Shown here: positions 1 through 59,259 of the stretch, piece by piece
Numbering within the stretch: the stretch's first letter is position 1
Layout: the number at the start of each line of letters is the position of its first letter
Assembly (NCBI RefSeq): GCF_030581075.1
Contig: NZ_JAUQSW010000002.1
Coordinates: forward strand, 1 to 64,000
Direction of reading: 5' to 3'
DNA: 64,000 nt
Source: Hymenobacter cheonanensis
GTDB lineage: Bacteria; Bacteroidota; Bacteroidia; Cytophagales; Hymenobacteraceae
Notes under the pieces: model-generated
What the model was told of the DNA's origin: nothing
The model's database searches: none
What the model saw: the letters and a program-made list of their open reading frames with translations, nothing else
Position numbers and translations under genes: made by a program

Positions 1-290
<290 letters not shown>

Positions 291-535
291 AAAATATTCC
301 TGCACCCATGCGAACATGGGCTGATGTCGAGTGCTCTCCTTGCTCGTATTTCGACGTTTGGTCGTCTAATTCGATTTCGCTTGTTTCTCATCAGTCGAAA
401 CTGATAAGACACTTACTATTTTGTCTATTTCCGTCATTCAAAGAACGAGTGTTACTTCCAATTGAAGTAACGGTGTGAGCTAGGTGAGCAGCTCGTTTTC
501 TTGCCGTTTGCAAGCCCTGTCTGTAATTGGGAGTG
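291..535 (-). other. rRNA operon leader
   Basis: This is the transcribed leader between the promoter-proximal start (about 530) and the mature 16S end. It is AT-richer than the rest of the window and holds no credible coding sequence; the short open frames here lack codon bias. Part of it would pair with the 16S 3' flank for RNase III processing, but that flank is outside the window. Confidence 0.6.
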
Positions 536-565
536 CAAAGGTAAGAAGATTTTTTGACTTTCCAA
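536..565 (-). promoter_or_regulatory. rRNA promoter P1 (closest to 16S)
   Basis: On the minus strand TTG (565-563), then exactly 19 bases, then TACCTTTG (543-536). This is the Bacteroidota housekeeping promoter form (-33 TTG, -7 TAnnTTTG). The spacer starts GAAAGTCAAAAA, shared with P3. Confidence 0.9.
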
Positions 566-641
566 ATTCGGAATCAAAAATTTTTATTTTTTTGATTTGC
601 TTCATCTTCTGGTCAAAACCGCCTCCGATTGAAGCGGGGTG

Positions 642-672
642 CAAAGGTAGAGAAGCTTTTTCGTTTTTACAA
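642..672 (-). promoter_or_regulatory. rRNA promoter P2
   Basis: On the minus strand TTG (672-670), 20 bases, TACCTTTG (649-642). The spacing is one base longer than in the other three copies and the spacer sequence differs. It lies in the rRNA upstream region on the same strand. Confidence 0.8.
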
Positions 673-813
673 GAAAAACTTAATTTAAACTCCTAGACTG
701 CTTTATTAAAGAAAGCTAAAATGAGAGCAACACCTAGTAGCAAGTATTTGCTAACTATTTGATTCACATCTTCAAGCCCTTTAAAACCGAAACGCCTATT
801 GCGATTGGGAGTG

Positions 814-843
814 CAAAGGTAAGGAAAATTTTTGACTTTCCAA
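814..843 (-). promoter_or_regulatory. rRNA promoter P3
   Basis: On the minus strand TTG (843-841), 19 bases, TACCTTTG (821-814). The region from the -33 box into the spacer (TTTGGAAAGTCAAAAA) is identical to P1, and the sequence after the -7 box (CACTCCCAAT) is also shared, so P1 and P3 look like duplicates. Confidence 0.9.
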
Positions 844-928
844 ATTTTGCCGTTTTTATTTTTCCGAACCATTTCAGCTATTTTGACTGTGCTTAGCGGC
901 CGTTAGCCCCTAATCCGGTTTGGGAGTG

Positions 929-958
929 CAAAGGTACCGTTATTTCTTGACAGCGCAA
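929..958 (-). promoter_or_regulatory. rRNA promoter P4 (most distal)
   Basis: On the minus strand TTG (958-956), 19 bases, TACCTTTG (936-929), followed by CACTCCCAAA as in P1 and P3. It is the most upstream of four promoters on the rRNA strand. Between here and 1232 I see no gene and no further promoter of this type. Confidence 0.85.
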
Positions 959-1232
959 ACTTTGGCCTGAAAAAAGCCATCTACTTCGTTGCTATTTTTT
1001 GACAATGGGCAAACTGATGCTGACTGTGAAGCAGTTCCCTTTTTGTTCCTAGCTTATGAAATGCGTGCCTATAATAGGCCAAGCATAGAACAAGGCTTGG
1101 CATTGCTTGTATTGGGGGGGGTGTGCTGGTACTTAAAACTCTTATAGCCAGTGGTAGCGCATGTAGCTTGCGGGCAGATGGGTGCTCGTTACATAGGAAA
1201 CGCTAGCGTGCTACACTGCTTATTTACTCGGT

Positions 1233-56294: not shown

Positions 56295-56400
56295 ACCCCA
56301 CCCCCAGCCCCTCCCCTTTGGGAGAGGAGAGCCTGACGATAGAGCACGCTAGCCCCGCCGTGGCTCCCCTCTCCCAAAGGGGAGGGGCTGGGGGTGGGGT
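56295..56400. repeat. Family C palindromic repeat, copy 2
   Basis: ACCCCACCCCCAGCCCCTCC (onward to CCTTTGGGAGAGG) at 56295 and its near-exact complement ending at 56400, arms about 39 bp. Related in pattern to the repeat at 26205-26337 (CCCCTCTCC core). It lies in the 307-bp gap between the cytochrome and desaturase-like genes; the rest of that gap holds nothing recognisable. Confidence 0.85.
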
Positions 56401-57433: not shown

Positions 57434-58717
57434 ATGAACGAACAATTGATTGTCAAGAATTTCGGCCCGATTAAAGACGCTACAGTGGACTTTAAGCGCG
57501 TCACTATTTTTATCGGGCCAACGGGCGGGGGCAAGAGTACGCTAGCGAAATTGAAAGATATTTTTCTGTATCGCAGAAACTATACTGTAGGAGAGACAAA
57601 AAAATCTAGCCACCCTCGATTTGATTCCAAAATAGCATACCAAGAGCACGGCTTATTAAATTTCTTTTCTAACAATACATTTATCGATTATAAATCATTC
57701 TATATTCATATCAATTACAAGAATGGCAATCATTTCATTGGCATTACCCTTGATAACATTCGAAACACTAAGCCAATAATTTCAAAAGAACAACTAATCA
57801 TACTGAATGAAAGAGTGAAGGAAGCAATTATACTGCAAGAAAAAGGATTGGAATTTGACAAAATTCAGAAAGAAATAGTAGGTGAATTATCAGAAATGAT
57901 AGCTGAATTACGCGACCTTCAATCGGGAGAAAGGACAAAAAGAGACTTCCCTACATTTGTCGCGCCTATAAGCCCTTGGTACTGCACTTCTGAAAGAGTT
58001 TTTGTTCCAGCTTTAGAGTATTCCTGGGCAGGATTGATTAGAGATGACATAGGCTTACCAAAACTTCTATTGCATTTTGCCAACAGCTTTCTACAAGCCA
58101 AAAAAGAAGTACCTGAATTAGCTATTCCGTTTCTAAATATTAAATACCTACATCAGGATGGGCGAGACCGTATAAAAATTCCTGGACGCGAAGAACCCCT
58201 ATTGTTGTTGGAAACTGCTAGCGGCATCCAATCCGTAACCCCGCTGCTGGTGCTGCTAGAGCACCTGAGCCGCAACACTGAGCAGGCGCAAAGCTTCATC
58301 ATCGAAGAGCCGGAGCTAAACCTCTATCCTACCGCCCAGCGCGATTTGGTGTACTGGCTACTGGAGAAATGCACTCAAGGCGATAATGACTTGACCATCA
58401 CCACGCACAGCCCCTATGTGCTGTCGGCTCTCAACCTGGCTTTGTATGCGGGCAAAGTCGCGACGCTGTTTCCGCATCAGCGCCAGAAAGTAGCGAAGAT
58501 TATTCCCGAGAAGTATTGGCTGAAGGCCGAGGAGTTCAGCGCCTACTATGTGGCGGGGGGCGGTGTTAAATCCATTTTTGATACAAAAACCGGCCTGCTC
58601 AGCGAAAGCCAGCTTGATGAAGTATCGGGCCATTTTGCCGACGTATTCGACCGGCTGACTGACTTGCGGGTACCCGAAAAGAAAGCTCCCGCTAAAGCCA
58701 AGTCTGCCAGGAAATGA
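57434..58717 (+). CDS. AAA/ABC-type ATPase (OLD/AAA_15-like), first gene of a two-gene unit
   Basis: 427 residues. SMC/ABC-like ATPase split by a long insert: N-terminal KNFGPIKDATVDF and Walker A GPTGGGKST (28-36); signature-like ASGIQS (262-267); Walker B FIIEEPELNLYP (288-299); H-loop TTHSPYVL (324-331). The C-terminus stops soon after (FSAYYVAGGGVKSIFDTKTG) with a basic tail and has no TOPRIM nuclease domain as OLD/GajA proteins do. Bases about 57580-58220 are far more AT-rich than both the gene's ends and its neighbours. The stop overlaps the next start (ATGA), so the two proteins are co-made. A defence role is inferred. Confidence 0.85.
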   Translation: MNEQLIVKNFGPIKDATVDFKRVTIFIGPTGGGKSTLAKLKDIFLYRRNYTVGETKKSSHPRFDSKIAYQEHGLLNFFSNNTFIDYKSFYIHINYKNGNHFIGITLDNIRNTKPIISKEQLIILNERVKEAIILQEKGLEFDKIQKEIVGELSEMIAELRDLQSGERTKRDFPTFVAPISPWYCTSERVFVPALEYSWAGLIRDDIGLPKLLLHFANSFLQAKKEVPELAIPFLNIKYLHQDGRDRIKIPGREEPLLLLETASGIQSVTPLLVLLEHLSRNTEQAQSFIIEEPELNLYPTAQRDLVYWLLEKCTQGDNDLTITTHSPYVLSALNLALYAGKVATLFPHQRQKVAKIIPEKYWLKAEEFSAYYVAGGGVKSIFDTKTGLLSESQLDEVSGHFADVFDRLTDLRVPEKKAPAKAKSARK

Positions 58718-59259
58718 AGTCTCGCATAGAGCGAGCATATCCCCACGGCTCGCGGTGTATCATTCACCATACGCGCACGGTGCGGCGCATTTTCGACTGC
58801 CCCATTCGGAAACTAACGCTTTACCGGACCGGTACTCGCGACCCTGACCTCGACTTTGAAATAGCGAACCCTAGCGGCCGTGATTTTTACACTATCAGCG
58901 TCGATGGATGTTTGTACCCCACCTCCCGAGGACCCAAACGCTGTGACTACGCCTTTTTCTGGAATGAAACAATAGTATTTGTCGAGTTCAAGCTTGGCAT
59001 GCCAGTTGGCAAAAGGACTAATGTTTCGGTACGCATGGGTCAAGCGCTTAATCAACTTATTCCTACCATCAGACGCTTCCAGCGGCACGGAGTTTTTCTA
59101 GAGGAAACCAAGGTTGAGGCAATAGCTTTTGTGAGTCGCCGCCCTATTCGTCCGCTTAATACTATTTCCATGCAAGCGGCGAAAGACAAGTTGAAGACGG
59201 CCTTCCCGACGCTTAATGTCAAGTTTAAGGTTAGCAAATCGAGAACTCTTCTTCGCTAG
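58714..59259 (+). CDS. Small protein with PD-(D/E)XK-like motif, partner of the ATPase
   Basis: 181 residues, no signal peptide or membrane segment. A central beta-hairpin carries KRCDYAFFWNETIVFVEFKL: Asp78, Glu91 and Lys93 fit the D...ExK catalytic pattern of PD-(D/E)XK nucleases, followed by a helix with Gln110 (RMGQALNQL), as in many members. Family not recognised. Its start overlaps the ATPase stop by 4 bp. Together the pair recalls Septu- or Gabija-type systems (ATPase plus nuclease) but with a different nuclease fold. Catalytic activity is a motif-based inference. Confidence 0.75.
   Translation: MKSRIERAYPHGSRCIIHHTRTVRRIFDCPIRKLTLYRTGTRDPDLDFEIANPSGRDFYTISVDGCLYPTSRGPKRCDYAFFWNETIVFVEFKLGMPVGKRTNVSVRMGQALNQLIPTIRRFQRHGVFLEETKVEAIAFVSRRPIRPLNTISMQAAKDKLKTAFPTLNVKFKVSKSRTLLR

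What the first reader, a model, noticed from the sequence alone, without database searches (positions are those of the whole stretch)
57434..59259. Coupled AAA/ABC ATPase and PD-(D/E)XK-like protein: candidate uncharacterised defence pair
The two genes overlap by ATGA. The first has Walker A (28-36), signature-like ASGIQS, Walker B FIIEEPE and THSP, but no TOPRIM or other nuclease. The second carries D78...E91-x-K93 and a following Gln helix, as in PD-(D/E)XK nucleases. Known systems split ATPase and nuclease this way (Septu uses an HNH partner; Gabija keeps TOPRIM in the ATPase), so an ATPase with a PD-(D/E)XK-like partner would differ. The ATPase centre is much more AT-rich than the surrounding genome, which suggests transfer.
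Basis: partly seen in the sequence, partly recalled or inferred. Interest (0 to 1): 0.78.

Follow-up and report, generated by a model that had tools for sequence, protein, structure and literature searches.

The report
Candidate ATPase-nuclease pair, exchanged central module
Two overlapping genes in a Hymenobacter-like bacterium encode an ATPase and a probable nucleic-acid-cutting enzyme that belong to a listed but untested candidate virus-defence pair, and the middle of the ATPase differs so strongly between otherwise similar relatives that it is probably the part that recognises the invader.

Summary
A (57434-58717) is an ABC/AAA_15-type ATPase; B (58714-59259) carries a conserved D78...E91-x-K93...Q114 site, and its confident model resembles PD-(D/E)XK nucleases, although the fold matches are weak. 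The pair is not uncatalogued: it falls in PADLOC's unvalidated candidate family PDC-M29 (81 of 81 A and 69 of 76 B proteins match). Of 295 genomes of the class, 15 match PADLOC's B model and all 15 have A beside it. Nearest neighbours are mainly housekeeping genes; some sites recur (dxs, lysS, hsp70). Two relatives have the window's flanks without the pair.

The new result is the 'AT-rich centre'. In 62 pairs of loci with similar B (mean 76% identity), ATPase residues 1-40 are on average 96% identical, 261-400 83%, but 41-175 only 27%, the lowest part in 61 of 62; 181-260 is intermediate (59%). At the dxs site, dxs averages 90% and this region 16%. The window's module is nearest to that of a locus with a distant B type, so modules are exchanged. 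Best reading: a Septu/PARIS-like sensor ATPase controlling a nuclease, with an exchangeable recognition module. Defence function, trigger and substrate are inferred.

The parts
57434..58717 (+). Gene A: 427-aa ABC/AAA_15-type ATPase (PDC-M29A family), proposed sensor/regulator
   Evidence: AAA_15 E 2.1e-20; PDC-M29A E 6.8e-48; model pLDDT 90.5; best structural rows retron PtuA Z 17.6, Septu PtuA Z 16.9, with Rad50/SMC heads about one Z unit lower and PARIS AriA-AriB Z 14.9
57515..57541 (+). Walker A, aa 28-36 GPTGGGKST
   Evidence: sequence; G28, G33, K34, S35 in 81 of 81
57554..57973 (+). Hypervariable AT-rich module, aa 41-180 (sharp upstream edge at about 40; downstream edge gradual, 181-260 intermediate), proposed exchangeable recognition module
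   Evidence: mean identity 27% (41-175) in 62 same-B pairs against 96% (1-40), 59% (181-260), 83% (261-400) and 76% (B); lowest part in 61 of 62; dxs- and lysS-site comparison; window module nearest L044, not the closest locus L045; GC 0.27-0.46 in 40-aa bins
58217..58234 (+). ABC signature-like ASGIQS, aa 262-267
   Evidence: S263 and G264 81 of 81, Q266 80 of 81
58295..58315 (+). Walker B FIIEEPE, aa 288-294
   Evidence: E291, E292, E294 81 of 81
58403..58414 (+). H-loop THSP, aa 324-327
   Evidence: T324, H325, S326 81 of 81
58714..59259 (+). Gene B: 181-aa PD-(D/E)XK-like nuclease (PDC-M29B family), proposed effector; overlaps A by 4 nt
   Evidence: PDC-M29B E 1.5e-6 over profile 43-134 of 164; model pLDDT 92.3, pTM 0.90; PD-(D/E)XK nucleases frequent in the structural list, best Z 6.0
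58945..58947 (+). B Asp78, proposed metal ligand
   Evidence: D in 76 of 76
58984..58992 (+). B Glu91-x-Lys93, proposed catalytic E-x-K
   Evidence: E/D in 76 of 76, K in 73 of 76
59053..59055 (+). B Gln114 on the following helix
   Evidence: Q in 76 of 76; helix 104-124 in the model

Best explanation
The two genes form a compact immune cassette. A is a Rad50/PtuA/AriA-like ABC ATPase that keeps B, a PD-(D/E)XK nuclease, inactive or poised. The module at A residues 41 to about 180 binds an invader-derived trigger, most likely a phage protein or phage nucleic-acid structure. Binding changes the ATP-dependent state of A and releases or activates B, which cuts nucleic acid (phage and/or host) and stops the infection. 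Recombination replaces the recognition module, and separately the nuclease type, on a more conserved ATPase scaffold, often at recurrent chromosomal sites, so related strains carry different specificities. Shown here: ATPase and nuclease motifs, linkage, patchy presence, modular hypervariability. Inferred: phage as trigger, control of B by A, the nucleic acid that B cuts.
For: A and B relatives match PDC-M29A (81 of 81) and PDC-M29B (69 of 76). 15 of 295 genomes match PADLOC's B model and 15 of 15 have A beside it; 78 of 80 A loci carry a B-profile match. A's model is nearest to PtuA (Z 17.6, rmsd 3.7, 258 aligned), and also near the PARIS complex (Z 14.9, rmsd 3.7, 238 aligned), nuclease-controlling ATPases of immune systems. 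B: conserved D, E-x-K, Q, confident model, a structural list with Can2, Card1, Cdn1, FokI and Avs4, weak HSDR_N_2 hits in 8 of 76. Residues 41-175 are the least identical part in 61 of 62 same-B pairs, at sites where the neighbouring housekeeping protein averages 90% identity; the recN control keeps a mean of 72% or more in every bin. Module and core disagree about the nearest relative. Desaturase and pirin genes are adjacent without the pair in G358 and G308. Identity of the module does not depend on B type, as expected if it contacts an outside ligand rather than B.
Against: No activity has been measured; PDC-M29 is an unvalidated candidate. Neighbours are mainly housekeeping genes, so there is no defence-island support. 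Not found in phage or plasmid records (B) or viral contigs (A) at the thresholds used. B's fold matches are weak: no Foldseek row at E 0.001 or below, best nuclease Z 6.0, acetyl-CoA carboxylase above it at Z 6.4 and small GTPases in the list. A's fold does not single out PtuA: Rad50 and SMC heads score Z 16.5. Three of 76 B have E-x-S. The variable zone has no sharp downstream edge: in Hymenobacter residues 221-260 are also only 31-35% identical. In Flavobacterium the ATPase core barely changes with B type, so no B-docking surface is evident there. Hypervariability could instead reflect escape from phage inhibitors.
Confidence: 0.6

Rival explanations
1. Direct DNA-restriction complex (Septu- or Lamassu-like): A recognises foreign DNA ends or structures through its Rad50-like head and B cuts that DNA directly; the variable module is a DNA-contacting or dimerising arm.
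For: A is nearly as similar to Rad50 and SMC heads as to PtuA; several PD-(D/E)XK rows are DNA nucleases.
Against: A DNA-contacting or dimer arm has no evident reason to be the least conserved part in 61 of 62 same-B pairs beside a 1-40 segment of mean 96% identity; the recN arm is not replaced in this way.
Confidence: 0.2
2. Toxin-antitoxin-like or anti-plasmid/mobile-element module: B is a toxic nuclease neutralised by A; the target is plasmids or competing elements rather than phage.
For: Small overlapping two-gene unit (29 of 75 loci with an exactly 4-nt overlap); patchy presence and apparent loss. PARIS, a related layout, is called a toxin-antitoxin system in a commentary (PMC11455837, whole text).
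Against: Rousset et al. (PMC9122126, passages) report that deleting either PARIS gene was non-toxic, so this layout need not be a classical toxin-antitoxin pair; invariant ATPase motifs suggest ATP-driven sensing.
Confidence: 0.12
3. A housekeeping DNA-repair ATPase and nuclease (SbcCD- or RecN-like) with a fast-evolving arm.
For: Rad50/SMC-like head; recurrent sites next to housekeeping genes in some genera.
Against: Patchy occurrence, 15 of 295 genomes; two relatives with the same flanks lack it; B type and module exchanged between loci.
Confidence: 0.04

Closest known systems
PDC-M29 (PADLOC-DB v2 candidate, genes PDC-M29A and PDC-M29B)
   Same: Best PADLOC match for both proteins, adjacent genes
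   Different: The window B is a divergent member (26.4 bits, partial profile); PADLOC gives no description for either model, and the nuclease assignment and the exchanged module were worked out here
Septu and retron-associated PtuA-PtuB
   Same: Small ABC ATPase plus separate nuclease; nearest solved fold for A (Z 17.6 to 16.9), Rad50/SMC close behind
   Different: PtuB is an HNH nuclease (PMC12409363 introduction); B here has a D, E-x-K, Q site
PARIS (AriA-AriB)
   Same: AAA_15/AAA_21 ATPase plus separate nuclease effector; an AriA profile matches 81 of 81 A; A model Z 14.9
   Different: AriB is a DUF4435/TOPRIM protein; B here is not
PDC-M56 and HEC-02 (PADLOC candidates)
   Same: PDC-M56A matches 64 of 81 A; PDC-M56B touches the window B at E 0.034; HEC-02B profiles match at most 3 of 76 B
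   Different: Much weaker or rarer matches than PDC-M29
Gabija / OLD family
   Same: Related ABC ATPase profiles (GajA E 7.1e-11)
   Different: GajA has a C-terminal TOPRIM domain and a UvrD-like partner (PMC10568477, passages); neither was found here

Membership tests
PDC-M29 | ATPase matching PDC-M29A | tested here: met
   E 6.8e-48, best PADLOC hit; 81 of 81 relatives match at 1e-15 or better
PDC-M29 | Second protein matching PDC-M29B | tested here: met
   E 1.5e-6 over profile 43-134 of 164; 69 of 76 relatives at 1e-3. PADLOC's own cut-off is not shown by the tool
PDC-M29 | Two genes adjacent | tested here: met
   4-nt overlap; 15 of 15 genomes
PDC-M29 | Anti-phage activity | not testable with these tools
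   Validation is described as pending for most PDCs (PMC12988326, passages)
PD-(D/E)XK superfamily | D...(D/E)-x-K site | tested here: met
   D78 76 of 76, E/D91 76 of 76, K93 73 of 76
PD-(D/E)XK superfamily | Characteristic fold | tested here: inconclusive
   Confident model with site residues by the strands and helix one would expect; many PD-(D/E)XK rows but Z 6.0 at best and no Foldseek E at or below 0.001
Septu | PtuA-type ATPase | tested here: inconclusive
   Z 16.9 to Septu PtuA, but Rad50 and SMC heads score 16.5; PtuA profile only E 1.1e-8
Septu | HNH nuclease PtuB | tested here: not met
   no HNH family among the Pfam matches of 76 B proteins at E 0.01; conserved site is D, E-x-K, Q
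PARIS | AriA-like AAA_15/AAA_21 ATPase | tested here: met
   AAA_15 and AAA_21 above Pfam cut-off
PARIS | AriB with DUF4435/TOPRIM | tested here: not met
   no DUF4435 or TOPRIM among Pfam matches of A or of 76 B
Gabija | TOPRIM in the ATPase and UvrD-like partner | tested here: not met
   no TOPRIM among Pfam hits of A; flanking genes are B, desaturase and pirin
Lamassu | SMC-type LmuB with PD-(D/E)XK LmuA | tested here: inconclusive
   LmuA appears at Foldseek E 0.14 only; no helix longer than 24 residues in the variable region of A's model; no Lamassu profile among the 25 best PADLOC hits of A

The most novel reading that the evidence does not exclude
The locus is a modular innate-immune receptor gene: a conserved ATPase scaffold with a recognition cassette (residues 41 to about 180) that is exchanged by recombination, often at recurrent chromosomal sites, and an independently exchangeable nuclease effector, so that close relatives hold different invader specificities on one scaffold, much as HsdS target-recognition domains are exchanged in type I restriction (recalled) but for sensing a trigger.
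Probability: 0.42. Interest if true: 0.76.

Novelty: new variant of a known kind. Interest (0 to 1): 0.62.

Why it matters
PDC-M29 is a listed candidate for which the held library shows no paper naming it. Giving it a nuclease active site and, above all, locating a region that is exchanged between loci with near-identical flanking residues tells an experimenter where the sensor probably is. Natural relatives share ATPase core and nuclease but differ in that region, so which invader each one senses can be tested directly by module exchange. The pair lies mainly among housekeeping genes, so scans that rely on defence islands would tend to miss it.

Tried and rejected
Known Pfam or NCBIfam identity for B: none for the window B at E up to 10. 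PDB by sequence with the B profile: seven hits, best E 0.047 (onconase, GroEL), taken as chance. B in plasmids and phages by tblastn: no match at E 0.01. A alignment in viral contigs: 65 pattern matches, none confirmed. B alignment in viral contigs: could not be run. BFVD structure search for B: nothing at E 0.001 or below.

The window B itself as query gave 7 of 295 genomes: five have A beside B (G000, G188, G242, G290, G257); two weak hits (L041, L043) have a stop inside and no ATPase match in their loci, and were rejected as chance. PADLOC's B model missed G257 at its threshold.

Idea that the A C-terminus docks B: in the window plus 29 Hymenobacter(aceae) loci, residues 341-412 follow B type (401-412: 94% in 27 same-B pairs, 51% in 351 different-B pairs), but in 11 Flavobacterium loci at the lysS site they barely do (95 against 89); left open, since physical linkage would also explain the first.

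The first recN control was run with half the genes on the wrong strand and was repeated correctly; only the repeat is used.

Selection effects: the 80 loci were found through two peptide patterns at A residues 4-12 and 288-296, which favours conservation there; the low identity of 41-180 is not selected. The 80 are the best of 213 confirmed. The 78 of 80 count uses a B profile built from members of the same set; 15 of 15 uses PADLOC's own model. Five of 80 were dropped before the B alignment: L050 (contig end, no B found), L078 (no B found), L069, L075, L101 (B split over frames). B starts in the script were taken as the first start codon within 70 nt of A's stop, so overlaps of 41-71 nt may be overestimates. 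Neighbours were called by a longest-ORF rule; the scan used 150 of the 157 nearest ones, each cut to 320 aa, and its family lists show the first 25 of 29 (PADLOC) and 25 of 119 (Pfam). The name lysS is recalled from the sequence; Pfam says class-II tRNA synthetase (D, K, N). Genes dxs and hsp70/dnaK rest on Pfam.

Papers: PDC-M29 as a word is in 0 papers of the held library. Searches aimed at an ATPase/PD-(D/E)XK two-gene system found one paper, on PARIS, and none; 'PDC-M' gave 314 papers, 25 listed, most unrelated, one opened. The source preprint of the PDCs (Payne et al. 2024, bioRxiv) is not held and was not read; it is known from a reference list. Two Nature papers on PARIS are not held.

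Full report
Observation. Two ORFs on the + strand, A 57434-58717 (427 aa) and B 58714-59259 (181 aa), overlap by ATGA. A matches Pfam AAA_15 (E 2.1e-20) and AAA_21 (6e-10) and no TOPRIM or nuclease family; B matches nothing in Pfam or NCBIfam at E up to 10. The window lies in a 5.36-Mb genome in 22 contigs.

Known family. PADLOC's best hits are PDC-M29A (E 6.8e-48) for A and PDC-M29B (E 1.5e-6) for B. Of the aligned relatives, 81 of 81 A match PDC-M29A at 1e-15 and 69 of 76 B match PDC-M29B at 1e-3. PDCs are putative defence candidates from a 'guilt-by-embedding' study cited as a preprint; validation is pending for most (PMC12988326, passages). A full-text search for PDC-M29 gave 0 papers. So the pair is catalogued as a candidate and, as far as the held library shows, uncharacterised.

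Linkage. In 295 genomes of the class PADLOC's B model is found in 15, and in all 15, the window included, an A homologue lies beside it (in L029 A is split in two ORFs). Starting from A, 78 of 80 loci have a B match, three of them with B split over frames; of the other two, L050 ends at a contig end and L078 has no B. In the 75 loci with an unsplit B the genes overlap by exactly 4 nt in 29, and 74 of 75 lie between a 71-nt overlap and a 3-nt gap.

B as a nuclease. Across 76 B proteins D78 and Q114 are invariant, position 91 is E (75) or D (1), and 93 is K (73) or S (3: L047, L061, L070). C15, C66 and C77 are frequent (69, 66 and 70 of 76). The model has mean pLDDT 92.3 and pTM 0.90; D78 precedes strand 79-83, E91 and K93 end strand 86-93, Q114 lies in helix 104-124. 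Foldseek against the PDB gives nothing at E 0.001 or below; its top four rows are the Hef nuclease domain, Avs3, Cdn1 and LmuA. The second aligner lists Can2 (Z 6.0, rmsd 4.5, 140 aligned), FokI (5.8, 3.7, 118), Cdn1 (5.8, 3.7, 111), Card1 (5.6, 3.8, 114) and Avs4 (5.2, 2.9, 89), but acetyl-CoA carboxylase is first (6.4, 3.2, 124) and small GTPases are present, so the fold match by itself is weak. Weak Pfam hits of relatives include nuclease-type families, HSDR_N_2 in 8 of 76, SfsA and NERD in 1 each, beside four unrelated single hits. Motif, order of elements and these hits together make a PD-(D/E)XK nuclease likely, not proven.

A as a sensor-type ATPase. The model (pLDDT 90.5) is nearest to retron PtuA (Z 17.6, rmsd 3.7, 258 aligned) and Septu PtuA (16.9, 3.8, 261), with Rad50 (16.5, 3.7, 252) and SMC heads (16.5) close behind and the PARIS AriA-AriB complex at 14.9 (3.7, 238). 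In PARIS, AriA sequesters AriB and releases it when a phage protein binds (PMC12409363, abstract and introduction; PMC11455837, whole text).

The AT-rich centre is a hypervariable module. Window A has GC 0.36 over residues 42-260 against 0.64 for the window. In 29 other Hymenobacter(aceae) loci mean GC is 0.54 for residues 1-40, 0.35 for 41-180, 0.37 for 181-260, 0.51 for 261-412 and 0.60 for the whole locus; 41-180 is the lowest of the four in 21 of 29. In 62 pairs of loci whose B proteins are at least 60% identical (mean 76%), mean identity is 96% for residues 1-40, 27% for 41-175, 59% for 181-260 and 83% for 261-400. The module is under 35% in 51 of 62 and is the least identical part in 61 of 62; the exception, L113/L120, keeps it (98%). 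The upstream edge at about residue 40 is sharp. The downstream edge is gradual: in Hymenobacter 221-260 is also only 31-35% identical.

Contrast with the host genome. Among 18 loci near dxs (153 pairs) dxs is on average 90% identical, A 1-40 96%, 41-175 16%, 181-260 39%, 261-400 65%; among 11 Flavobacterium loci next to lysS (55 pairs) lysS 90%, 1-40 97%, 41-175 34%, 181-260 78%, 261-400 92%. RecN from 24 of 25 genomes of the window's genus, another ATPase with an inserted arm, has a mean identity of 72% or more in every bin.

Exchange. The window's closest locus among the 80 in core and B is L045 (261-400 94%, B 82%), yet 41-175 is 13% identical and the module search finds no match at E 0.001, whereas the window module matches that of L044 at 41% (E 5e-37), whose B is only 28% identical. 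B types are exchanged too: L103 and L113 share 96% of A 261-400 but 26% of B. Module identity is about the same in same-B and different-B pairs in both genus sets, which suggests that it does not contact B and fits an outside ligand. The source of the exchanged DNA cannot be told here.

Setting. Among 150 nearest neighbours Pfam finds DXP synthase in 16, class-II tRNA synthetase in 13, HSP70 in 5, cytochrome c in 4, pirin in 3; PADLOC families at E 1e-8 have at most 2 members each. In two loci the pair lies between succinate dehydrogenase flavoprotein and iron-sulphur subunit genes (L033, L042). In the window it lies between a desaturase and a pirin. In G358 and G308 desaturase and pirin genes (90-96% identical to the window's) are adjacent with 439 and about 251 bases between them and no A or B match; in G350 DNA after the desaturase aligns with the window for 8 bases into A and then differs, which looks like a remnant. 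B was not found in plasmid and phage records and A not in viral contigs at the thresholds used.

Mechanism. Most likely A holds or positions B, the module senses a trigger, and an ATP-driven change frees B to cut nucleic acid. Shown: motifs, linkage, patchy presence, modular variation. Inferred: trigger, control of B, substrate, anti-phage role.

Verdict. A real, conserved pair, a divergent member of candidate PDC-M29, probably working like Septu or PARIS but with a PD-(D/E)XK-type effector; it fails a defining feature of each of those two. The notable new point is the exchangeable module in the ATPase. On checking, I softened the edges of that module and the uniqueness of the PtuA match; the odds did not need to change.

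Noticed in passing
   Followed up: partly
Hymenobacter loci such as L044, L045, L047, L051, L055, L056; Flavobacterium loci such as L093, L102-L104, L108, L107, L109: Recurrent positions: by dxs (18 of the 80 loci plus L027), after a class-II tRNA synthetase taken as lysS (11 Flavobacterium loci plus L086 and L087), after an hsp70 gene (5 loci directly).
   Followed up: yes
L047, L061, L070, gene B: E-x-S instead of E-x-K in three related B proteins, with D78 and Q114 kept: possibly inactive or altered nucleases.
   Followed up: no
L069, L075, L101 gene B; L029 gene A: Genes split over two frames or ORFs, either decay or sequencing error.
   Followed up: no
L127 (G350), after base 2394: After the desaturase a short stretch like the start of gene A is followed, by eye, by long inverted repeats, as if the pair had been lost.
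   Followed up: partly
window 56297-56400: By eye, a long GC-rich inverted repeat between the cytochrome c and desaturase genes.
   Followed up: no
gene B alignment, positions 15, 66, 77: Three frequent cysteines (69, 66, 70 of 76), one directly before the invariant Asp78; role unknown.
   Followed up: no
window 1-1000: GC 0.43 against 0.64 for the window, another AT-rich patch.
   Followed up: no
neighbours of the 80 loci: Two of 150 neighbours match RT_UG29 (a defence-type reverse transcriptase), two match mad3, and one matches PDC-M29B (E 8.2e-65), perhaps a second pair.
   Followed up: no
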